Source of the DNA: Bacteroidales bacterium
GTDB lineage: Bacteria > Bacteroidota > Bacteroidia > Bacteroidales > F082
Length of the DNA: 64,000 nucleotides
Direction: 5' to 3'
Assembly: GCA_016284305.1 (NCBI GenBank)
Contig: JAEEON010000074.1
Location: forward strand, 1 to 64,000
Each line of letters starts with the position of its first letter. Position 1 is the stretch's first letter. A model generated the notes under the pieces. The model was not told the DNA's origin, ran no database searches, and saw nothing but the letters and a program-made list of their open reading frames with translations. Positions 7,467 to 64,000 of the stretch are shown here, one piece after another. The position numbers and the translations under genes are program-made.

Positions 7467-8321
7467 TCAATGTGTTAAGATTTCCAAGCCGTTCTCGGTC
7501 ATAAGGAAAGTGTGTTCCCATTGGGCGGAAGGCAACTCATCTTCAGTGATCACGGTCCAGCCGTCAGCACTGTCGATAAACACCTTCCATGTACCCATGT
7601 TGATCATCGGCTCGATGGTAAACACCATACCGGGGACCAACAACATGCCTGTACCCTTCTTGCCAAAATGAAGCACTTCGGGATCGTCATGGAACTTCAA
7701 GCCCACACCATGTCCACAGAGGTCACGCACCACGCTGAAGCCATTTTTATGGGCATGTTTCTCGATGGCATTGCCAATGTCACCCACAAAGCCGAAAGGT
7801 TTGGCGGCCTCCATGCCCACATAAAGACACTCTTTGGCTACGTCAACCAGCTTTTGTTTACGCGGTGTGGTCTCGCCAATGACATACATTCGCGAGGCAT
7901 CGGCATAATACCCGTCAAGAATGGTGGTGCAGTCCACGTTGATGATGTCGCCTTCTTTCAGAATCTCCTTGGCTGAAGGGATGCCGTGGCACACCACCTC
8001 GTTGATGGAAGTGCATACGCTTTTGGGGTAGCCCTCATAGCCTAAGGTGGCTGGGATGGCTCCATGTTCTATGGTGTAGTTATGGACGAGCTCGTCGATC
8101 TCAAGCGTACTCATCCCTGCGTGGATCTTCTCACCCACCAAATCAAGGATGGCCGTGTTGATGACGCCACTGCGCTTGATGCCCTCAATCTCCTCTGGAG
8201 TTCGTATCAACGTCCGTTTCGGCACCAAGGCCCCACGAGCCTCTATCGCCATCACCCTACGATCCAATGCTGTAGGTTCCACACCTGCAGGAACACGCCA
8301 TCTTTTTCTTTTATTAAACAT
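7467..8321 (-). CDS. map: Type I methionine aminopeptidase
   Basis: Removes initiator Met from nascent proteins in the cytoplasm. All five metal ligands are visible: Asp and Asp in NVDCTTILDGYYADASRMY, His in GHGVG, Glu in TIEPMIN and Glu in QWEHTFL; the substrate His lies in NEVVCHGIP. The 284-residue protein has the short Arg/Lys-rich N-terminal extension (KRKRWRVPAGVEPT) that, from general knowledge, is common in Bacteroidetes MetAPs. It lies 33 nt downstream of dnaG on the same strand, so polA-dnaG-map may be co-expressed. Confidence 0.95.
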   Translation of the reverse strand: MFNKRKRWRVPAGVEPTALDRRVMAIEARGALVPKRTLIRTPEEIEGIKRSGVINTAILDLVGEKIHAGMSTLEIDELVHNYTIEHGAIPATLGYEGYPKSVCTSINEVVCHGIPSAKEILKEGDIINVDCTTILDGYYADASRMYVIGETTPRKQKLVDVAKECLYVGMEAAKPFGFVGDIGNAIEKHAHKNGFSVVRDLCGHGVGLKFHDDPEVLHFGKKGTGMLLVPGMVFTIEPMINMGTWKVFIDSADGWTVITEDELPSAQWEHTFLMTENGLEILTH

Positions 8322-8354
8322 CGTTCTTTTTATTTTTTGGTTAATCTAATTCGT

Positions 8355-10313
8355 TTATTTCGCAATCACAATGCCCAACTCACGGTTAATCTGCACTCGA
8401 AAGTCATCCCAATGCTTCTTCTTTTTTAGAAGAAGCATTTGATTGTCAATATCTCGTTCTTCTTTTAACTGATTTTCAATTTCCTTTAGTTGGCCATCAA
8501 TAATCAAGTCTTTGTAACGCAACACGGCATATTTGACTGCTTTCCGCAGCATGTCCTCTTCTTTTTTCACGAAGATTCCATGACGATCCCAGCAATCAAG
8601 TTTATAAGGAGTGGTCAGCAAGTCAATCGCCAACTTCGACACCTGTTCATCCTCGTTGGTGATAAAATACTGATCGTCAGGAAGATTACCTGAATCGATG
8701 GCCTTGTCATAGACATTGAAAATCTTACGGTTGACGGGGTCATTGAAGACAATCTCATCATTGATCAAGTCATCGATGATCAGCTGTGCCACCGAGACTT
8801 GTTCTTCCACTTCGTGCCCATCTTCGTCCACTCGGGTGTCGATCAGCTTGACTTGACCATAGACCAGCAGCAGTTTGACCAGTTCGCGTTCTTGGTAAAA
8901 GCCCGGAGGCAAGTTCTCATCTTCGGACTTGGTTTGAGGTTGAGTCACCACGGGTTCATCGGGGATCACCTCACCTTCCACACCGAGTGACTTCTTGAAC
9001 TTAGCTCGAAGCAGCTTGTTGAGTTCCATCATCAGCGTCTCCTCGGGCATGTCAAGCAGGAGGCTTGACTCCTTGACGTAGGCGATACGGAAGATCGAAT
9101 CGGGCACTACGGAGATGGTCTCGACGATAGTACGGACCACTTGGCCTTTCTTGATAGGGTCGTTAGCGGCATCTTTCAGCAACAGCTCCGTCTTGAATCG
9201 GATGAAGTCCTTGGCGTTGTCTTTCAGATAACGAGTCACCTCGTCGCTAGGATAGGCTTTGCCAAACGAGTCGGGGTCGTGTTCGGGAGGCAGCACCACC
9301 ACGCGTACATTCATCCCTTCGGCAAGGATCATGTCTGTCCCTCGGAGAGCGGCGTGGATGCCTGCGTCGTCACCATCATAGAGCATGGTGATGTTCTTTG
9401 TATAACGTTTGATCAGCCGTATCTGTTCGATGGTCAACGAGGTACCCGAGCTGGCGACCACATTGGTAACGCCAAGCTGGTGCATTCGGAGCACATCGAA
9501 ATAGCCCTCCACCAGGATGCATTCGTCTTGATTGACGATAGAGCTCTTAGCGAAGTAAATGCCATAGAGGGTTTCTTTCTTTTGGTAGATTTCCGACTCG
9601 GGTGAGTTTTGGTATTTGGCCAGTTTTTTTTCGGCATCCGATTTCAGGATACGTCCTCCAAAGCCGATGACCTTACCCGTCAGGTTATGTATGGGAAACA
9701 TCACCCGGCCATGGTAACGGTCGTAATAGTCTCCGTTTTGTCGTTTGATGGAGAAACCCACACGTTCAAGGAATTCCGGATCGTAGCCATTGTCCTTGGC
9801 GTAGTTGGTGAAGGCCTCCCACTGGGAGGGGCTGTAGCCAAGGTGGAATTTCTCGATGATAGGGTTGAGGAAGCCCCGTTCGTGGAAGTAGTCCAATCCC
9901 ACCGATTTCCCTTCGTCGGTATTCCACAAGGTGTCAACGAAATACTTATCGGCGAAGGCGTTGATGTTGAACATTTTCTCCCGTTCGGTCTGCGCCATCA
10001 TCTCTTCGGGACTCAGTTCTTTTTCCTCTATTTGGATGTTGTATTTCTTGGCAAGATAGCGGAGGGCTTCGGGATAGGTGAAATGTTCATGCTCCATCAG
10101 GAACTTTGCCGAGTCGCCGGCTTTGCCACAGCCGAAGCACTTGAAGATGTTGCGCGCTGGGTTGACGTTAAACGACCCAGTTTTTTCGTTGTGGAAAGGG
10201 CATAGGCCGATGTAGTTCGCACCACGTTTCTTCAACGTGACGAACTCTCCGACCACTTCTTCAATACGTGCGGTCGAAAGAATCTGCTCTACGGTTTCTC
10301 TTGGGATCGGCAT
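8355..10313 (-). CDS. dnaG: DNA primase
   Basis: Synthesises RNA primers at the replication fork. The N-terminal CHC2 zinc finger is visible (CPFHNEKTGSF, then FKCFGCGKAGD, about residues 39-65), then the primase core, then a TOPRIM domain with VEGYFDVLRMHQLG and MLYDGDDAG around residues 265-320. The ~200-residue C-terminal region would contact the replicative helicase. The length of 652 is normal. It is preceded by a TAATTTTG -7 box and lies 68 nt after polA. Confidence 0.96.
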   Translation of the reverse strand: MPIPRETVEQILSTARIEEVVGEFVTLKKRGANYIGLCPFHNEKTGSFNVNPARNIFKCFGCGKAGDSAKFLMEHEHFTYPEALRYLAKKYNIQIEEKELSPEEMMAQTEREKMFNINAFADKYFVDTLWNTDEGKSVGLDYFHERGFLNPIIEKFHLGYSPSQWEAFTNYAKDNGYDPEFLERVGFSIKRQNGDYYDRYHGRVMFPIHNLTGKVIGFGGRILKSDAEKKLAKYQNSPESEIYQKKETLYGIYFAKSSIVNQDECILVEGYFDVLRMHQLGVTNVVASSGTSLTIEQIRLIKRYTKNITMLYDGDDAGIHAALRGTDMILAEGMNVRVVVLPPEHDPDSFGKAYPSDEVTRYLKDNAKDFIRFKTELLLKDAANDPIKKGQVVRTIVETISVVPDSIFRIAYVKESSLLLDMPEETLMMELNKLLRAKFKKSLGVEGEVIPDEPVVTQPQTKSEDENLPPGFYQERELVKLLLVYGQVKLIDTRVDEDGHEVEEQVSVAQLIIDDLINDEIVFNDPVNRKIFNVYDKAIDSGNLPDDQYFITNEDEQVSKLAIDLLTTPYKLDCWDRHGIFVKKEEDMLRKAVKYAVLRYKDLIIDGQLKEIENQLKEERDIDNQMLLLKKKKHWDDFRVQINRELGIVIAK

Positions 10314-54106: not shown

Positions 54107-55624
54107 ATGAAAAACAAAAACAACTTTACGCACTTGCTTTTTGCAACCGCACTACTCTTTTTACTGACTTCAGCTCATGTTTTCGGACAATGCTCATTTA
54201 CGGTGACCGAAGGCCAACCTTTTATTGAGAATTTTGACAGTGAGGAGGACTTTGCTTGTTGGACGATTGAAGATAACACGGGTGGTACTTGGGACTATTT
54301 CCAAAGTAGCGAGAACTCAGCACTTGCTTCATTCACACACAAAAACGATGGAGACATGGCCCGCCTCGTCTCGCCTGTTCTCGACTTGTCAGGAGTTTCA
54401 GAAGCCACCTTTAGATACAGTTACGCCATGATGGGGCTTTACAATACCGATGAACTCATCATCAGTTATCGTTCTTCTGAAAACGACTCATGGCATGATT
54501 TGGCCAACCATAGCATCAGCGATTATGTCAATTATTATGAGGATGTGTTCACGCTGACCGATTTGTCTTCAACGTATCAGGTGTCGTTTTTGGGAATTGG
54601 TCATGGCGGCCTCTACATCTTTGTTGACAATATCGAGATTGCCTCAACATCGAACTGTGCTCGTCCCGTCAATCTTCAGGCTACTGAAATCACTTCTTAC
54701 TCAGCACTCCTCAGTTGGTCAACCAATGGCAACGAGGAAAGCTGGATTGTCGATTTGAATGGCGAAGAAAGAGTCATTAATGAACAACCTTATTATATTG
54801 ACAAGCTGATTCCAGAAACGCAATACACTTTCAAAGTTAAGGCTAACTGTGGTGATGGCGAGGAATCCGAATGGTCCGTTCCGATTTCTTTCACCACGAG
54901 ATGCGATGTGATCCTCGTCACTGACGACATGCCATATACTGACGACTTCGAGGCGTCTGAGGAATTTATTTGCTGGACCAGCGAGATTGTCTCCGGAACG
55001 GATAACTGGATCTTAGACCTTGGCTATGTGATTCACAATCACACGGCCTTTTTCATTTGGCTTGGTGGTCAAGCCCGTCTTGTCTCTGCTCCTCTGGACA
55101 TCAGCACCGTCACTGAGCCCACCCTTTCTTTCAAGCGCCGTCAGCGTCTGAATTCTGCTGGTGTCTTCGATGATCTATCGGTTTGGTACCGTGTCGCAGA
55201 AACCGAGGAGTGGCATCTGCTTGCCAACTTCCCCTTCGCCTCACAAGACTGGGAAGAAATCGTCGTCCCATTGCCCCATCCCACCGAGACCTACCAGATC
55301 TCGTTTTTGGCTGAGGCAAACAATGCCGAAGGCGTTTATGTCGATGACGTAGAGGTGGGTGACGTCCATTCCGTTGGCCTCAGCGAGAGCCATGGCCTCA
55401 AGGCCTCTGTCAGCCCTAACCCAACTACCGGCAAAGTCACAGTTGTAGCCGACGTCACCGAGGGTACTGCTACCGTGTTCGATATCTTCGGCAAACAAGT
55501 GGCTTCTGCCTTCATGCTGGATGGTCGTGCCAACATCGACATGAGCGGTCTCGCCCGTGGCGTCTATATGGTTCGCATCACCGATGCCACTGGAACCACC
55601 ACCATCAAGTTGGTGAAGGAGTAA
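54107..55624 (+). CDS. T9SS-secreted protein with two choice-of-anchor-J modules and an FnIII domain
   Basis: 505 residues. A signal peptide (residues 1-27, ending HVFG) is followed by a cleaved-adhesin/MAM-like module (FIENFDSEEDFACWTIED, ARLVSPVLDLSG, VDNIEIAS), a fibronectin type III module (CARPVNLQATEITSYSALLS), a second anchor-J module (FEASEEFICWTSEI, ARLVSAPLDIS, VDDVEVGD) and a T9SS type A signal (VSPNPTTGKVTVVADV, GVYMVRI). Surface adhesin or matrix protein; ligand unknown. Its last 20 nt overlap the end of the convergent vsr gene. Confidence 0.87.
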   Translation: MKNKNNFTHLLFATALLFLLTSAHVFGQCSFTVTEGQPFIENFDSEEDFACWTIEDNTGGTWDYFQSSENSALASFTHKNDGDMARLVSPVLDLSGVSEATFRYSYAMMGLYNTDELIISYRSSENDSWHDLANHSISDYVNYYEDVFTLTDLSSTYQVSFLGIGHGGLYIFVDNIEIASTSNCARPVNLQATEITSYSALLSWSTNGNEESWIVDLNGEERVINEQPYYIDKLIPETQYTFKVKANCGDGEESEWSVPISFTTRCDVILVTDDMPYTDDFEASEEFICWTSEIVSGTDNWILDLGYVIHNHTAFFIWLGGQARLVSAPLDISTVTEPTLSFKRRQRLNSAGVFDDLSVWYRVAETEEWHLLANFPFASQDWEEIVVPLPHPTETYQISFLAEANNAEGVYVDDVEVGDVHSVGLSESHGLKASVSPNPTTGKVTVVADVTEGTATVFDIFGKQVASAFMLDGRANIDMSGLARGVYMVRITDATGTTTIKLVKE

Positions 55625-56162
55625 ATGTGATATCTGTTTCTTGATCTTGATGATACGCGAAAGGTTGGCGTTGATGTTGGTGGAGTTGAAGGAAGTTTTC
55701 GTTGAGTTGAAGTTCCACCTGGAGCATGGTGTTTTCAAGGGTTTTGGGTTTAAGTTGGCATTCCCAAATGGTGATGACATGCCATCCATTATTGCTTAGC
55801 AGTTGGATGTTTTGTTGGTCGCGTTCTTGATTGCGACGTATCTTGTTCACCCAGAACTCCCGATTCGTCTCTGGAATCTTACAACATTTTGAACCCTTCT
55901 GTTGGTTTTTTCTCCCCTCTCCTTCGGGAGAGGGGTCGGGGGTGAGGCTATGTCCATGCCAAAAACAACCGTTGATGAAGATGGCGGTATGGTAGCGTCG
56001 CATCACGATGTCAGGTTTTCCCGGGACGCTTTTCACGTTGAGTCGATAACGATAGCCATGATGCCACAGCCATTGCCGCACTTTCAGTTCCGGCTTGGTG
56101 TTGCGGCTGCGAATGTGCGACATCACGAGGTGACGTTGTTCGGGAGTGAGGCGGTCGGTCAT
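55605..56162 (-). CDS. vsr: Very short patch repair endonuclease with in-frame repeat insert
   Basis: 185 residues. Vsr nicks beside T:G mismatches arising from 5-methylcytosine deamination. The conserved RSRNTKPELKVRQWLWHHGY, VPGKPDIVM (catalytic Asp) and FINGCFWHGH are intact, and NNGWHVITIWECQL closes the fold. Between HGH and KCCKIPETNREFW there is an extra ~18-residue segment (LTPDPSPEGEG...) read from a hairpin repeat, in the loop where E. coli Vsr holds zinc ligands. After the usual C-terminus ~28 Gln/His-rich residues overlap the neighbour. No cytosine methyltransferase gene is visible nearby. Its start is 4 nt after the upstream gene. Confidence 0.9.
   Translation of the reverse strand: MTDRLTPEQRHLVMSHIRSRNTKPELKVRQWLWHHGYRYRLNVKSVPGKPDIVMRRYHTAIFINGCFWHGHSLTPDPSPEGEGRKNQQKGSKCCKIPETNREFWVNKIRRNQERDQQNIQLLSNNGWHVITIWECQLKPKTLENTMLQVELQLNENFLQLHQHQRQPFAYHQDQETDITFTPSPT
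55911..55948. repeat. GC-rich hairpin repeat inside vsr
   Basis: CCCCTCTCC (55914-55922), TTCG loop and GGAGAGGGG (55927-55935) make a perfect 9-bp stem, followed by TCGGGGGTGAGGC. It is read in frame as LTPDPSPEGEG within Vsr. The sequence resembles a dispersed palindromic element known in many bacterial genomes. Confidence 0.85.
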
Positions 56163-57820: not shown

Positions 57821-58318
57821 TTACAAGCCAGATTCTTCGAGATAGGCATTCAAGAACCGTTCAGCGAGGCTGTTGGGGCGGATGTTTTGTTGTGCCGCTT
57901 CCGGCGAGAACCATTGGTAGGAGTCAATCTCCCTGTTGGGTGAAAGCTCACTGGCGTCTTTCACGAAGGCCGTGAAGTTACACATAAGCGTGTTCGACGG
58001 CTCGAAGAAGCTCGTGCGGTTGAACCTGACGCGACTCACCGTCATCCCCGTCTCTTCCTTGATCTCGCGACCCACGGCGTGTTCCAGTGGTTCGCCACGG
58101 TTCACGTAACCTGCGACGAGGATGAAGAAGGGGCGGCCATACTGTTTGATCAGCAGGATCTCCCCTGTCTGTTCGTTGATGACGATCATGCTCACCGCCA
58201 CGTTGTACATGGGGAAGCGGAATTCCTCACATTGAGGGCAGTAAGGCACGATGCCCTCGTCTTCCAGTTCCTTCTCAATAAGCGGGGCGCCGCATTCGAA
58301 GCAATGTTTTTGGATCAT
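57821..58318 (-). CDS. Nudix hydrolase with zinc ribbon
   Basis: 165 residues. The N-terminal zinc ribbon (CFECGAPL, then YCPQCEEF) is followed by a Nudix box in GYVNRGEPLEHAVGREIKEE-TGM. This arrangement resembles NADH pyrophosphatase (NudC)-like proteins but is shorter. It hydrolyses a nucleoside diphosphate linked to another moiety; substrate not readable. Monocistronic, minus strand. Confidence 0.88.
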   Translation of the reverse strand: MIQKHCFECGAPLIEKELEDEGIVPYCPQCEEFRFPMYNVAVSMIVINEQTGEILLIKQYGRPFFILVAGYVNRGEPLEHAVGREIKEETGMTVSRVRFNRTSFFEPSNTLMCNFTAFVKDASELSPNREIDSYQWFSPEAAQQNIRPNSLAERFLNAYLEESGL

Positions 58319-58372
58319 AGTGTCGGTTTATTCATTGATGTTGAGGGAGTGTACTTCTTCTTATCATGGCTC

Positions 58373-58417
58373 ATACTCTGCGGAAACCATAAAAATAACA
58401 CAGATTCCGCCGAGTAT
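58373..58417. repeat. Hairpin repeat, copy 1, just after the ATPase/nuclease gene
   Basis: ATACTCTGCGGAA (58373-58385) and TTCCGCCGAGTAT (58405-58417) are inverted arms (12/13 complementary) around a 19-nt A-rich loop ending AACACAGA. Similarity to copy 2 extends to about 58432 and includes the stop codon of the gene. Confidence 0.85.
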
Positions 58418-58422
58418 AAAGG

Positions 58423-59841
58423 TTATTTTTCAAAAAGAGCATCAGCAGTAATGATAGCATGAAACTCATCGGAGTAAGCATTTCGTTTTACACCGCTAGC
58501 CGAGACGAGAATTAATTGGACGGCTTTGTCGGTGCCTGTTTCAGCAATGAAACGGTCACGTCGGTTCTGTATTCTCACTTCCTCCTCGTATTTCATTTCA
58601 TAGGGCTGTTTGGTATATTTCATTTCACAAATATCTATAACAGAATCGTCGCGGTCGATGATAAGGTCGATCTGAGCGCCGTTTTTGTCGGCAGTTTTAG
58701 GGAGATACCATGAGCAGATTCGGCTTATGGTGCCAAAAATGCTTAGGGCTTTACGGATTTGATCAACATGCAGCAAGCAGACGCGTTCGAAAGCATGACC
58801 GCACCAATTGAAGTAGAGAGGTGAACCCGTTTGACGCGACCAGAAAGAACTGTCGGCCGAAGTATTTCCTGCTATAAAGTCGTAATAAAAAAGCGTGTAG
58901 GAGTCAATAAGCTGGAAGATGGCGTTCTTGGTGTTGAACCCAAAGTTGGTGTAGCGACGGATGAAGCCGCAGGCCTCAAGATCCTTCAGTATCTCTGAGA
59001 GGCGGCCGTTGTCTTCAAGACCGGCCTGCTCAATCAGTTCTTCACGGGTTAGACCGACACGTTTGGTGCCGAGTGTTTGAACAACGGTGAGGTAGGGCTG
59101 GGGGTTCTTGAAAAGCGAGGCATAAAGTGCATCGAATTCATCATAGAGTTCCCCATCTGGATTAAAGAACAGGTTGTCAATATTTTGTGCAAGGCTAAGC
59201 CCACGTTCAAGTTTCGACCAATAGTATGGGATGCCGCCCATGATCATGTAACACTCCATAAGCTGCCGGCGAGTCATGACGAGTTTTCGGTGACGGGCAT
59301 AGCGCTCACACTCATTGAGGGTAAATGGATGAAGGTGTATTTTGGTGTTGACGCGATTGTGAAGGCCGCCTTTGTTTTTTAGTATTTTTTTGATGATCCA
59401 CGAGGTGGCACTACCGCATACTATGAGCACCACGTCCTTGCGCGCTGAAGCCCAGCCATTCCAAAAACGTTCAAGGGCGGAAACAAAACCCGAGCGCTGA
59501 GTGTCCAACCAAGGAAGTTCGTCAATAAAAACTAGCTTTTTCGACTCGTCAGACATGACGACAATTTCCTTGAGGGCTTCAAATGCGTCAAGCCATGAAG
59601 TTGGCAGTGGGGCTTTCTTAAGACCATATTCACGCAGTGATAGACGCCAGGCTGCAAGTTGTTTTTTCATTGACGATTTGGCCAACCCGGTGTGATAGAA
59701 AGTGAACTTGTTGTTGAACGTTTCGCGTACAAGATAGGTCTTACCCACACGGCGGCGACCGTAAAGGGCTACGAACATAGAGTCTTCTTCAAGCGTTGCC
59801 TGCAGGAGACGTTGTTTTTCCGTTTCTCTTCCGATAAGCAT
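58423..59841 (-). CDS. AAA+ ATPase with PD-(D/E)xK (DUF234-like) domain
   Basis: 472 residues. Walker A ALYGRRRVGKTYLVRE lies near residue 30 and the Walker B-like KLVFIDELPWLD near 125, typical of the archaeal/Bacteroidetes ATPase family. A winged-helix region (TREELIEQAGLEDNGRLSEI) is followed by a C-terminal nuclease-like domain with GAQIDLIIDRDDSVIDICEM-K (D-x(n)-E-x-K). The gene is bracketed by two near-identical hairpin repeats, one 5 nt after its stop and one ~50 nt before its start. Function is unknown; such genes multiply in genomes and may be mobile or defence-related. A TATCTTTG -7 box lies 26 nt upstream. Confidence 0.85.
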   Translation of the reverse strand: MLIGRETEKQRLLQATLEEDSMFVALYGRRRVGKTYLVRETFNNKFTFYHTGLAKSSMKKQLAAWRLSLREYGLKKAPLPTSWLDAFEALKEIVVMSDESKKLVFIDELPWLDTQRSGFVSALERFWNGWASARKDVVLIVCGSATSWIIKKILKNKGGLHNRVNTKIHLHPFTLNECERYARHRKLVMTRRQLMECYMIMGGIPYYWSKLERGLSLAQNIDNLFFNPDGELYDEFDALYASLFKNPQPYLTVVQTLGTKRVGLTREELIEQAGLEDNGRLSEILKDLEACGFIRRYTNFGFNTKNAIFQLIDSYTLFYYDFIAGNTSADSSFWSRQTGSPLYFNWCGHAFERVCLLHVDQIRKALSIFGTISRICSWYLPKTADKNGAQIDLIIDRDDSVIDICEMKYTKQPYEMKYEEEVRIQNRRDRFIAETGTDKAVQLILVSASGVKRNAYSDEFHAIITADALFEK

Positions 59842-59867
59842 GACAAAGTGATGTTTAAACCCGGGTA

Positions 59868-59875
59868 CAAAGATA
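59868..59875 (-). promoter_or_regulatory. -7 box for the ATPase/nuclease gene
   Basis: TATCTTTG on the minus strand matches TAnnTTTG. The expected -33 region falls in hairpin repeat copy 2, which could therefore influence expression. Confidence 0.5.
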
Positions 59876-59892
59876 CGAAAAAAAAAACTATT

Positions 59893-59937
59893 ATATTCAG
59901 CGGAAACTACAAAAAAAACACAGATTCCGCTGAGTAT
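59893..59937. repeat. Hairpin repeat, copy 2, upstream of the ATPase/nuclease gene
   Basis: ATATTCAGCGGAA (59893-59905) and TTCCGCTGAGTAT (59925-59937) are inverted arms (12/13 complementary) around a 19-nt A-rich loop ending AACACAGA. Same geometry and orientation as copy 1; similarity continues to about 59952. Confidence 0.85.
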
Positions 59938-59960
59938 ATTGGTGGTTTTTTATATTGTTA

Positions 59961-60863
59961 TCATTTATGAATGGATGCGACCAACGCGTCGCTGATGTTA
60001 TTACCTAACTGGCGGCAGACGTCTTGGCTCCAACGTTGGGCCATCGCTATTAGTTGAGAATTGAGAGGTGAGAGATGAGAGGTTGAGGCAATGATTTTGG
60101 CGTAGATATAGCCGGCGTTGAAGTTGTCACCCGCACCTACCGTGCTGACGGTCTCGATGGGTTGCACAGGATACGTCTCACAGCCCTCGGGGGTATAGAC
60201 CCGGATGGGGTGTGCGCCATCCGTAAGTATCAACGTGGTACAATAGCGACTCACTTGTGCGTAGATGGCATCACCGTCATTCAGTCCGTACAGATAGTTG
60301 AAATCTTCCATCGACCCCCGCACCACATCCGCCAGGCTCATGTTCTCTTCGATGTTGGGCATCACGTCGGGCAGGTCGGCGATATGGTTTTTACGGAAGT
60401 TGATGTCATAATAGAGCCAGGCACCCGCTTTGTGCGCCTTACGCAGCAGTTCACCCACCACGGGTCGTATGGCAGGGTTGATGGCGAAGAACGAGCCGAA
60501 GAGCACCACGTCATCCTTCTTGAACTCGGGCAACGGACCATCCAGCGACACCGAGGCGTGATCCTTATAGAACACATAGTGCGCATCGTTGTGTTCATCC
60601 AGGAACGCCAGCGACAGATGCGACTTGACCTGCTCATGGCGGCAGACATAGTCTGAAGACACGCCGTTTTCTTTCAGGTAGTTACAGATCAGATCGCCCA
60701 CATGGTCGCCGCCCACTTCCGTCACCATGGCACAGGGTATGCCCGCCCTTCCGAGTGAGACGATGCTGTTAAATGTGGAGCCGCCAGGGACCGCTTTTAG
60801 GGGTTGGTCGTCCTTGAACAGGATGTCGAGGACGGTTTCTCCGATGCCGAGGACGCGAGTCAT
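59961..60863 (-). CDS. PfkB-family carbohydrate kinase (fructokinase-like)
   Basis: About 300 residues; start at MTRVLGIGETVLDILF. PfkB signatures are VPGGSTFNSIVSLGRAG near residue 30 and the C-terminal TVGAGDNFNAGYIYA with the catalytic Asp. It phosphorylates a sugar such as fructose or a ribose-like substrate; exact substrate not decidable. Residues ~257-271 (STSHLSPLNSQ) are read from a stuttering repeat shared with intergenic regions, placed between two C-terminal helices. It begins 22 nt after the upstream STAND-type gene ends. Confidence 0.9.
   Translation of the reverse strand: MTRVLGIGETVLDILFKDDQPLKAVPGGSTFNSIVSLGRAGIPCAMVTEVGGDHVGDLICNYLKENGVSSDYVCRHEQVKSHLSLAFLDEHNDAHYVFYKDHASVSLDGPLPEFKKDDVVLFGSFFAINPAIRPVVGELLRKAHKAGAWLYYDINFRKNHIADLPDVMPNIEENMSLADVVRGSMEDFNYLYGLNDGDAIYAQVSRYCTTLILTDGAHPIRVYTPEGCETYPVQPIETVSTVGAGDNFNAGYIYAKIIASTSHLSPLNSQLIAMAQRWSQDVCRQLGNNISDALVASIHK
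60049..60090. repeat. Stuttering repeat within the PfkB kinase gene
   Basis: On the minus strand CTCATCTCTCACCTCTCAAT-TCTCAACTA shares the 16-mer CACCTCTCAATTCTCA with 24235-24250 and resembles 31587-31605. It is translated in frame. Confidence 0.65.
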
Positions 60864-60884
60864 GCACATAAGAGTTGAAATGCC

Positions 60885-63800
60885 TTAATTATTGTCAATG
60901 CCACTAATAACTTTTAACACACTCGGTGTATATGATTCCAATATCATAGCATCAACGATATCCATAACCTCATCTGCCTTTTCTGTTTCTTCATCATCCA
61001 TAAAAACACGATAGCAGGACAAAAGGATTTTGAACAACTTTTCTTCATCATAATAGTTTATTGGGTTTTTGCTATCTATGAGCAACTTTATACACTGATA
61101 ACTTTCATACGGATATTTATAAATAGCTTTTTCAAGATATTGGATAATGTCATGGAACCCTCTTTTTATGGGAGTATCTAACCATTGTTTAAGCAAATCA
61201 TTAAATAAATGTATTTGATTATCAGGCATATCATCACACCAATCCAAAAAAGAATCTCTCACCTCTTGCCGACGGTCACTAGCATATCTTCTTAGGAACA
61301 TTTCACTCTGCTTTCCATAAAGATCATCTGAAAGATGTTGATATGCTAACGGTATTACTTTTTTTATTACTACCTCTTCGTTTTGAGAAAGCAAAAACTC
61401 AAACATCTCTTTTGACGCATCTTTGGATTTCTCATACTGAAGACCGAAAAACATTAGTTGAACCAAGATGGTTTTTGCTCTATTATTGCCCACAATCATT
61501 CTGAAATACGGTAATATTTTTTCTGGATCGTTGTACCAAAACCAATGCATTCTATCAGCATTCAAAAACAAATAGTCAGAAATTGGCTTCGTGGAATATT
61601 TGAACATTATCTCATTATAAAACTCATTGTCATAGCATTCCATATTAAGATAATACATAGCCGCCAATTGATGTTCGAGGCTCAATTTGTCAGCAATTTC
61701 CATGAAAAACCCATATACCATTGCTTTTCTTTGAGGCAGTTTTCCGATTTTAGCCAACGAATGTATAGCATATCCCTGATAATTATTGACTCCGGTTGTC
61801 AACATATCATTGATTCCTGATTCTCTATTAAATTCGTCTTCTATGCTTGGATTGTATTTTGACTTATATTCAGATAGTATGATTCCTTCCAAATATTCAA
61901 TAGTTTTATTTATATATTCACCATCTACTATAGCAATATTATCTATTACATCAAAAAGTCTGTAGCTATATCCATCTTCGAACAAGTTCCCAACAATTTC
62001 TATACTCTTCCATAGATAAGGCAGTATCTTATCCAAGGAATAGTGTGCTGATGCCAATCCCTCAAGACCAGACAATTTATAGAGAATTGGGACCTTATCA
62101 TCGTCAAACAAACCAAAGACAAAGTCGTCAAAACGGTCTGGTTGCTCACTGACACATTGTTTAAAAGTATCAGCATGTACTCTTTCATCAAAATGGCGGA
62201 ACTTCCCTTTTGCATACCGTTGTACACCATAAAATGAATTTAACCAACTATTAAATGTTACCGTTTTGTATTGTTCAATCGGCATAAGGCCACCACAGAC
62301 AAAAGCTGCGGTTGCCTCATGATCAGGCTTTGTGTTATTCCATTCATCGTCAAACCTCCTATTTAATTCTAATAATCTGTTTTTATTCTGTTGGTTGCGA
62401 AGATGTTCCGGTATGGCACAAATTAGTTCTCTTTGATGATAACCTAAATGAGGATAATACAACATTGAGTTTTTTTTCTCTTTATTAGAGAAACTATCTG
62501 ACGCTGCTTTAAAATTATAGATGTATTCCTGTACTTTTGCCAAGATTTCGCCATCAACTGTCAACAACCATTTCCTTAACATTTCCAAGAAATAGTATCT
62601 TGCGTCACTGGTTGTCAGCAGATCATCCACCAATTGAGGATTTTCAAGTATGATAATCATCTCCTTTGAGAAATAAGCAGGATTCTCCGCCATTGCCATA
62701 AAAGCAAAAACATAACAACTAACTTCTCTTTGATCCAATAAACGCCTAATATCTTCAATTTTGGAATCCGGATGAGTCTTCACTTCGTGTTTCAACATTT
62801 CGCCAAACCACTTTTCCAAAGAAGAAGAACCTTGATGGCGCCCAAGATAATGAGCGAACACTTTGTCATAATCAATCTCATTTTTCCACTCAGAAATCCG
62901 ATTTGCATTTATGGCGCCTATGATCGCGTCTCTCAAAATAGGATAAAAGTCATTTGCATGCTTTTTCATCATGGGTTTACAAATATCTTCAACAATATTC
63001 CTCATAACATGTTCTTTGTCACCGTCTTCCTCTTTTTTAGGATTTAGCACATATAATAATAAATCCATTATTTTATCAAGTACAAATTTGGGATTGGTTG
63101 CCAAAGCGCTCTCTAAGAAATCTGCCTTTTTTTCGAATGTGTCACATAAAGATTGATACCATTTTGTAACAATGCTTAACGAAAAGTCAGGAGTGAAATA
63201 CAGTAATCTCTGAACTACATTGTTTCTTGTTTTCTCGTCCTTAATTTGATCTATTAACTTATATACTTCTTCTGTGCTAACTTGAACATGGTTCCATAAA
63301 AACCCATAAACATTCAAGTATTTGGTATCACCGACAAGCATTTCTGTAATGTCTTTGGCAAGCAATGGGCATATTACATCATACCATTCCTTATTTCTTG
63401 TCTGTTTTATGAATGAATAAAACAATGATGGAGTTTGTACGCACAATTCTTTTATACATTTTTTCTCAAAAGGTAAAATGTTTGTTCGGTTTGCCATTCC
63501 CCAAAGAAACATCAGTTGGATATGCACTCTTACTTTTTTAGAAAACAATATGGTCTTGACATCTTCCTGATATTGTTTTGCGTTTTTTGCTCTTTCGTAA
63601 TCAATCACCATATTAACAGTGGATCGTAAAAACAAACCTTGATGCTTTTTTTCTGCCACTATTTTTTGAATGAATGGCTGTTCTCCTTTTGTATGATACC
63701 GCGCAAATACATAGTCATACATGCTCTGATGGAAGAAGGTCGCCCTATTGCCCACTTGTTCAATAACACCTTTACTAATAAGATAGTTTGATTCTCTAAA

Positions 63801-64000
63801 ACTCTCAGTATCAGATTCCCATTGTGGAGTTAAAGTTTCGTCATCATATATTTTTTGAGCCAAACCATATAAAACATTTTCGGCTGATTTCTTATTGATT
63901 GTGACTTCTGAAAGGTTTATTGTTTGTCGCCATAATTCATCATACAAATCCGTTATGGAAAGATAGTTTGTTTTGGGGTTTTTTACAAACACTTGACAAA
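60885..64000 (-). CDS. C-terminal part of a very large STAND/NACHT-type protein, 5'-truncated
   Basis: The frame is open to the right edge, so the start and the expected NTPase module lie outside; 1,037 residues are visible. The N-terminal visible part (YLSITDLYDELWRQTINLSE, then ATFFHQSMYDYVFARYHTKG and KKHQGLFLRSTVNMVIDYER) resembles the helical/winged-helix segment following NACHT-type ATPase domains. The remainder is a long helical, HEAT- or TPR-like solenoid with no recognised repeat family. STAND proteins of this layout commonly act in anti-phage defence, which is inference here. Base composition is much more AT-rich than the neighbouring genes, suggesting horizontal acquisition. Confidence 0.65.
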   Translation of the reverse strand, partial: CQVFVKNPKTNYLSITDLYDELWRQTINLSEVTINKKSAENVLYGLAQKIYDDETLTPQWESDTESFRESNYLISKGVIEQVGNRATFFHQSMYDYVFARYHTKGEQPFIQKIVAEKKHQGLFLRSTVNMVIDYERAKNAKQYQEDVKTILFSKKVRVHIQLMFLWGMANRTNILPFEKKCIKELCVQTPSLFYSFIKQTRNKEWYDVICPLLAKDITEMLVGDTKYLNVYGFLWNHVQVSTEEVYKLIDQIKDEKTRNNVVQRLLYFTPDFSLSIVTKWYQSLCDTFEKKADFLESALATNPKFVLDKIMDLLLYVLNPKKEEDGDKEHVMRNIVEDICKPMMKKHANDFYPILRDAIIGAINANRISEWKNEIDYDKVFAHYLGRHQGSSSLEKWFGEMLKHEVKTHPDSKIEDIRRLLDQREVSCYVFAFMAMAENPAYFSKEMIIILENPQLVDDLLTTSDARYYFLEMLRKWLLTVDGEILAKVQEYIYNFKAASDSFSNKEKKNSMLYYPHLGYHQRELICAIPEHLRNQQNKNRLLELNRRFDDEWNNTKPDHEATAAFVCGGLMPIEQYKTVTFNSWLNSFYGVQRYAKGKFRHFDERVHADTFKQCVSEQPDRFDDFVFGLFDDDKVPILYKLSGLEGLASAHYSLDKILPYLWKSIEIVGNLFEDGYSYRLFDVIDNIAIVDGEYINKTIEYLEGIILSEYKSKYNPSIEDEFNRESGINDMLTTGVNNYQGYAIHSLAKIGKLPQRKAMVYGFFMEIADKLSLEHQLAAMYYLNMECYDNEFYNEIMFKYSTKPISDYLFLNADRMHWFWYNDPEKILPYFRMIVGNNRAKTILVQLMFFGLQYEKSKDASKEMFEFLLSQNEEVVIKKVIPLAYQHLSDDLYGKQSEMFLRRYASDRRQEVRDSFLDWCDDMPDNQIHLFNDLLKQWLDTPIKRGFHDIIQYLEKAIYKYPYESYQCIKLLIDSKNPINYYDEEKLFKILLSCYRVFMDDEETEKADEVMDIVDAMILESYTPSVLKVISGIDNN

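What the first reader, a model, noticed from the sequence alone, without database searches (positions are those of the whole stretch)
58373..59952. ATPase/nuclease gene bracketed by identical-geometry hairpins: candidate mobile cassette
Two copies of a ~58-nt repeat in the same orientation flank the AAA+ - PD-(D/E)xK gene. Each has 13-nt inverted arms with one mismatch and a 19-nt loop ending AACACAGA, 1.52 kb apart. The downstream copy supplies the stop codon and the upstream copy covers the promoter's -33 region. The two arms differ from each other but stay complementary (GCAG/C versus CAGC), i.e. compensatory change, which suggests the hairpin itself matters. A unit of this form could be mobilised by structure-specific recognition, with the encoded ATPase/nuclease as the possible agent, or could regulate it.
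Basis: partly seen in the sequence, partly recalled or inferred. Interest (0 to 1): 0.78.

Follow-up and report, generated by a model that had tools for sequence, protein, structure and literature searches.

The report
Hairpin-bracketed ATPase-nuclease gene cassettes
In this bacterium and its relatives, a single gene for a protein that looks like an ATP-driven DNA cutter sits between two matching DNA hairpins, and comparisons between genomes suggest that the gene and its own private hairpins come and go as one package.

Summary
The repeat is real: 58 nt at 58373-58430 and 59893-59950 (83% identical, same orientation, each a hairpin) bracket a 472-aa gene. The protein is ATPase_2 with a PD-(D/E)XK-like end and matches PADLOC's candidate defence family PDC-S27. 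The pattern is general: matched direct repeats flank 41 of 106 copies against 4 of 788 neighbouring genes and 29 of 40 census copies. Hairpins differ between subfamilies; across loci with unlike flanks they resemble each other in 81 of 92 pairs at >=60% protein identity and 47 of 2239 below. Sites exist with no hairpin and no gene, with hairpin-gene-hairpin, and with one hairpin alone; five relatives lack both at the window site. On a tree the lone hairpins of two genomes lie inside an occupied clade, suggesting loss. No two sampled copies of one genome exceed 60% identity, so this is not plain copy-and-paste. Best reading: a mobile one-gene cassette with cognate terminal hairpins; the protein as its mover is inferred.

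The parts
59893..59950 (-). 5' terminal hairpin repeat (upstream of the gene); arms 59893-59905 and 59925-59937
   Evidence: repeat D1; fold
59868..59875 (-). TAnnTTTG box between the 5' hairpin and the start codon (Bacteroidetes -7 consensus, recalled)
   Evidence: read; such a box lies 25-41 nt before the start in 40 of 49 copies
58423..59841 (-). 472-aa ATPase with C-terminal PD-(D/E)XK-like domain (PF01637; PADLOC PDC-S27)
   Evidence: models; fold matches
59737..59760 (-). Walker A (GRRRVGKT)
   Evidence: conserved columns of the 17-member alignment; motif name recalled
59509..59535 (-). Walker B (LVFIDELPW)
   Evidence: motif name recalled
58618..58626 (-). ExK of the nuclease-like motif (E406, K408); D392 at 58666-58668, E352 at 58786-58788
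   Evidence: all four residues invariant in 17 of 17; motif name recalled; fold neighbours
58373..58430 (-). 3' terminal hairpin repeat, holds the stop codon (58423-58425); arms 58373-58385 and 58405-58417
58320..59950 (-). approximate inserted unit; right edge uncertain within about 50 nt
   Evidence: 5 of 15 relatives with a strong NUDIX match join the pfkB-like stop to the NUDIX start with no hairpin and no gene (L036, L037, L039, L040, L041); the other 10 have other neighbours there
59961..60869 (-). left neighbour, pfkB-family kinase
57821..58318 (-). right neighbour, NUDIX hydrolase

Best explanation
The finding is one member of a large family of mobile single-gene cassettes: hairpin, promoter, ATPase-nuclease gene, hairpin. 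Each subfamily has its own hairpin, present at both ends, usually in the same orientation. Supported by comparison: whole units are present at sites where relatives have neither gene nor cassette hairpin; a gene can be lost leaving one hairpin; hairpin and protein sequences change together even when flanks differ. Inferred: the protein binds its cognate hairpin as folded or cruciform DNA and its nuclease domain cuts there; recombination between the two repeats leaves one hairpin behind and could release a circle with the gene and one hairpin; spread is mainly between cells, and a second copy of the same subfamily is excluded or does not persist. The protein may also, or mainly, serve in defence.
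For: Matched repeats: 41 of 106 copies vs 4 of 788 control genes (L020 dropped); 29 of 40 census copies; 14 of 21 S27-like genes among 30 fetched of 44 ATPase_2 matches in G065. Of 70 copies with matched repeats, the 5' repeat folds better than 20 shuffles in 65. Co-variation of hairpin and protein over loci with unlike flanks. Sites with neither: window site, 5 genomes; L026 site, 6 of 10 genomes fetched; elbB/hydratase-like site (gene names recalled), 16 of 19 genomes fetched; L249 site, 5 of 5 compared; L244 site, 5 of 6; L006 site, G013, which has only another element's lone hairpin. One-hairpin sites: G065, G089, G020, G007, G088, G004, G087 at the L025 site, G088 at the L244 site. Tree: G065 and G089 nest in the occupied clade. 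One hairpin type searched in 15 genomes: two copies flanking one gene in 6, single copies or partial matches in 6, nothing in 3. 5' stems show no G.T over A.C excess (28 vs 21), fitting a DNA-level role.
Against: No copy was seen moving and no reads were examined for circles. No two copies of one genome exceed 60% identity, unlike a replicating transposon. No consistent target-site duplication; at L249 the unit replaces about 62 nt. At the L023 site G091 has a different palindromic stretch of 112 nt in place of the unit. 65 of 106 copies lack a matched repeat. Spread by host homologous recombination is not excluded. 3' stems show G.T over A.C 35 vs 17 (p 0.018), 23 vs 17 (p 0.43) after thinning, so an RNA role of the 3' hairpin is not excluded.
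Confidence: 0.58

Rival explanations
1. The gene is an anti-phage defence gene (PDC-S27). Hairpins are its regulatory or sensing sites, and genes are swapped between relatives by host recombination; the protein does not move itself.
For: [quoted passage not shown]
Against: Does not by itself explain the same private hairpin at both ends, sites with neither gene nor hairpin, or lone hairpins left behind.
Confidence: 0.25
2. The hairpins are ordinary bidirectional terminators or insulators framing a horizontally acquired gene.
For: A T-run (>=5 in 8) follows the 5' hairpin in 39 of 70 and the 3' hairpin in 26 of 70; an A-run precedes in 25 and 36 of 70.
Against: Median loops of 14 and 16 nt and no T-run after 44 of 70 3' hairpins; close 5'/3' match (median score 55) that tracks the protein.
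Confidence: 0.08
3. REP/RAYT-like system: the hairpins are dispersed repeats and the gene is their mobiliser.
For: Gene flanked by cognate hairpins; local hairpin arrays at L032, L076, L083, L092.
Against: The hairpin type tested occurs once or twice per genome, not in hundreds; local searches of 29 loci found further matches in 3, one of them 25 nt long; no HUH/Y1 transposase family among Pfam matches.
Confidence: 0.05
4. Type III toxin-antitoxin-like pair (kind recalled): hairpin repeats act as an RNA partner of the nuclease.
For: Cognate co-variation; double hairpins in several subfamilies; 3' stems with more G.T than A.C before thinning.
Against: In 22 of the 31 matched copies with a box the 5' repeat ends upstream of the promoter box; no G.T excess in 5' stems.
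Confidence: 0.04

Closest known systems
PDC-S27 (PADLOC phage-defence candidate)
   Same: Same protein family, single gene; counted 2865 times in rumen genomes in PMC13356809 (passages)
   Different: The passages seen in the two papers that name it speak of defence and distribution; they mention no flanking hairpins, lone hairpins or self-mobility
Archaeal ATPases SSO1545 and PABY2304 (PDB 2fna, 2qen)
   Different: Here a nuclease-like C-terminal domain follows, and the gene has cognate hairpins
IS200/IS605 elements
   Same: Small mobile unit whose ends carry secondary structures (PMC6006769, start of abstract in search listings)
   Different: No HUH transposase family found here; hairpins are direct repeats; no near-duplicates in a genome
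REP/RAYT systems
   Same: Hairpins associated with a nuclease gene (PMC2817692, PMC3116915: search listings only; cognate flanking recalled)
   Different: Hairpins of the type tested are private to one gene, not dispersed
Integron cassettes and solo LTRs (both recalled)
   Same: Structured cassette-end site; a lone terminal repeat left after loss
   Different: The single gene is an ATPase-nuclease; the same hairpin stands at both ends

Membership tests
PDC-S27 (PADLOC) | profile match over the whole protein | tested here: met
   E=9.1e-194, residues 2-470 of 472
PDC-S27 (PADLOC) | antiviral activity | not testable with these tools
   needs phage assays; validation pending for most PDCs according to passages of PMC12988326
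ATPase_2 (PF01637) | match above curated cut-off | tested here: met
   47.8 bits vs 33.2
DUF234 (PF03008) | C-terminal domain above cut-off | tested here: not met
   16.7 bits vs 22.5; listed for 4 of 17 members at E<=5
PD-(D/E)XK nuclease | conserved acidic residues and ExK | tested here: met
   E352, D392, E406, K408 invariant in 17 of 17
PD-(D/E)XK nuclease | nuclease fold | tested here: inconclusive
   Foldseek matches to McrBC, R2 protein, EndoMS and a P. abyssi repair endonuclease at E 5e-3 to 2e-2, TM 0.38-0.47; only one hit, of unknown function, under 0.001; that these are PD-(D/E)XK folds is recalled
IS200/IS605 | HUH (Y1) transposase | tested here: not met
   no such family among Pfam matches of the window protein or of 17 members
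IS200/IS605 | hairpins near element ends | tested here: met
REP/RAYT | hairpins in many dispersed copies | tested here: not met
   one hairpin type in 15 genomes: at most two copies at one gene; other types not counted genome-wide
Autonomous transposon | several near-identical copies at different loci of one genome | tested here: not met
   top within-genome identity 0.60 among 48 copies of 8 genomes and 21 of G065; not every copy of each genome was fetched
Autonomous transposon | fixed-length target-site duplication | tested here: inconclusive
   at most 2 nt at the L026 and L006 sites, others unresolved
Integron cassette | movement by a tyrosine integrase at attC/attI | not tested
   no integrase search was made

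The most novel reading that the evidence does not exclude
A new class of transposable element: one gene for a STAND-like ATPase fused to a PD-(D/E)XK nuclease that recognises its own terminal hairpins as DNA structures, excises and inserts the unit without a classical transposase or recombinase, and excludes a second copy of the same specificity from the cell, so that genomes collect many mutually different elements which are now filed as defence candidates.
Probability: 0.38. Interest if true: 0.92.

Novelty: new variant of a known kind. Interest (0 to 1): 0.74.

Why it matters
[quoted passage not shown] Cognate hairpins at both ends, with empty, occupied and one-hairpin sites, give a direct handle on what the protein does: bind it to its own hairpin and look for excision. 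If it moves the unit, this is a new type of mobile element; if not, it is a defence-type family with a structured regulatory or self tag. In the open library searched (titles, abstract starts and a few passages seen) I found no description of these flanks.

Tried and rejected
Terminators: T-runs are too irregular. REP-like dispersal: one hairpin type found only at its own gene or alone. RNA partner: see rivals. Solved-structure search by sequence found nothing at E<=0.01. Plasmid and phage records: 132 and 8 records with relatives, all under 60% identity; the two short phage scaffolds opened were unannotated linear records, not circles. R-M-like genes in L092 first looked like cargo; they sit between decayed ATPase pieces, so cargo is not claimed. 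DUF4143 genes as a second hairpin family: 5 of 29 had a repeat of score >=25, three of them one subfamily and one looking like a terminator match. NCBIfam gave nothing above cut-off.

Cautions on counts. One search prints 42 of 107; I dropped L020 (gene cut by the contig end, false match). In one search the 'unlike flank' pairs among L014-L019 are probably one rearranged locus. Hairpins for one search were picked by requiring 12 of 17 complementary positions, which inflates pairing; its shuffle does not keep relatedness. Copies were chosen by similarity to the window protein. Empty-site searches: of nine loci, sites with both flanks were followed for four (L006, L023, L025, L026), one was partial (L013: a hairpin in G059 without a matching left flank) and four gave none (L010, L011, L021, L022); of six loci, two were followed (L244, L249). 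In one search G059 is represented by one neighbour gene and G058, G069, G087 by the other; G087's unit lies on a contig without either neighbour, so its coding as occupied at that site is uncertain; the tree is midpoint-rooted and no formal test of loss was made. That the 14 repeats differ was judged by eye.

Full report
What is in the window. Two 58-nt copies, 83% identical and in the same orientation, lie at 58373-58430 and 59893-59950. Each folds better than shuffled sequence. Between them, on the minus strand, is a 472-aa gene (58423-59841). The stop codon falls inside the downstream copy, and a TAnnTTTG box (59868-59875) lies between the other copy and the start.

How common it is. The own genome has this copy, one at 43% and one weak match. 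A scan of named genomes kept the best 80 loci, by title mostly Bacteroidales, some in bins titled Kiritimatiellae, Lentisphaerae and Firmicutes groups.

The flanks. I scored the best direct repeat between about 160 nt upstream and 200 nt downstream. Score >=25: 41 of 106 copies (26 of 30 genus loci, 15 of 76 named loci) against 4 of 788 other genes in the named loci (L020 dropped). In a census of 40 further copies from eight genomes 29 had it, or 37 of 49 with nine earlier loci. In G065 (listed as 100% complete) 30 of 44 ATPase_2 matches were fetched; 21 are S27-like and 14 of these have matched repeats, all different by eye. Of 70 copies with matched repeats, 65 have a 5' hairpin scoring above 20 shuffles, so a few repeats may not be hairpins. 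A TAnnTTTG box lies 25-41 nt before the start in 40 of 49 copies, at 58 in 3, and was not seen in 6; in 22 of the 31 matched copies with a box within 60 nt the repeat ends upstream of it, in 9 the matched stretch reaches it.

Hairpin and protein belong together. Among 70 copies with matched repeats (of 146), pairs with unlike flanks and protein identity >=0.60 have similar 5' repeats (score >=20) in 81 of 92 cases; below 0.60, in 47 of 2239. The two repeats of one copy have a median score of 55. In 32 non-redundant hairpins sharing a GCGGAA-like core, the outer 11 positions pair in 270 of 352 cells, against a mean of 158 and a maximum of 191 in 2000 shuffles (selection caveat under Tried and rejected). 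5' stems show no G.T over A.C excess (28 vs 21); 3' stems show 35 vs 17 before and 23 vs 17 after thinning.

Empty and half-empty sites. At the window site 5 of 15 relatives with a strong NUDIX match join the pfkB-like stop to the NUDIX start with neither gene nor hairpin. At the L026 site 6 of 10 fetched genomes lack both; the unit lies directly behind a stop codon and before a terminator-like hairpin, while G086 has a hairpin with an ATPase remnant there and three have other inserts. At a site between genes I call elbB- or DJ-1-like and hydratase-like (names recalled), 16 of 19 fetched genomes have neither; G055, G059, G060 and G075 have the unit between both genes, G058 and G069 have it with the hydratase side only, and G087 has the same unit on a contig without either gene. 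G065, G089, G020, G007, G088 and G004 have a single hairpin there; in G004 the second gene is several kb away. On a tree of the two genes G065 and G089 fall inside the occupied clade (support 95 for the five-genome clade, 70-76 for their own nodes), so their single hairpin is most simply a loss. One-hairpin sites also occur at L025 (G087) and L244 (G088). Sites without gene and cassette hairpin also occur at L249 (5 of 5 genomes) and L244 (5 of 6). At L006, G013 has only another element's lone hairpin, and G051 and G052 carry another ATPase copy bracketed by that same hairpin. At L023, G091 has a different palindromic stretch. A single related hairpin without a gene within 1.5 kb also occurs in G093.

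Details that hint at mechanism. In at least six loci the left repeat, or a remnant, carries a copy of the last 14-50 nt of the coding region before the hairpin (L006, L007, L011, L231, L232, L092), as if a tail-plus-hairpin block were the real repeat. In L028 and in G020's lone hairpin the hairpin core is inverted, as could happen if the structure is opened and rejoined. Junctions give at most a 2-nt duplication at two sites and a replacement of about 62 nt at L249.

What speaks against a plain transposon. In 48 copies from eight genomes, and in the 21 of G065, no two proteins of one genome exceed 60% identity, while 61 of 985 between-genome pairs reach 75%. Either units move mainly between cells, or a second copy of one specificity is excluded.

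Comparison with the known. Two papers in the searched library name PDC-S27; the passages I read treat it as a candidate defence system (PMC12988326; PMC13356809). The architecture resembles IS200/IS605 and RAYT units in having hairpins at the ends of one nuclease gene, but I found no transposase family and, for the type tested, no dispersed hairpins. I therefore call it a new variant of a known kind, a mobile one-gene cassette, and keep the new-transposon-class reading as the open novel case.

Noticed in passing
L178 (G060:C8) 7850-9200: A 390-aa ORF that looks like an ATPase of another type (by eye, no family search) is inserted beside the cassette with an apparent repeat of about 42 nt of the neighbouring hydratase-like gene's 3' end.
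   Followed up: partly
G065, G089, G059, G060, G055: DUF4143 matches number 49-58 per genome; 5 of 29 scored had a flanking repeat of score >=25.
   Followed up: partly
L377, L391, L404 (G065): Three ATPase_2 genes outside S27 (23-24% identical to the window protein) also show flanking repeats with scores 30-42, two of them hairpin-like by eye.
   Followed up: no
L092 5880-10000: A methyltransferase-like ORF and a second ORF that may be its partner (by eye, not searched) lie between decayed ATPase pieces and hairpin arrays.
   Followed up: partly
L219 (G086:C15): A lone hairpin next to what reads as the last ~25 codons of an ATPase gene (by eye), at the site where G020 carries a cassette: a possible fossil of another element.
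   Followed up: no
L006, L244 and L026 insertion points: Units sit next to an existing hairpin or terminator-like hairpin, which may mark preferred targets.
   Followed up: no
window 60885-63992: A 1035-aa open reading frame on the minus strand without any Pfam match at E<=0.001.
   Followed up: no
window 55605-56162: An ORF that looks like a Vsr-type mismatch endonuclease; recalled from its sequence, not searched.
   Followed up: no
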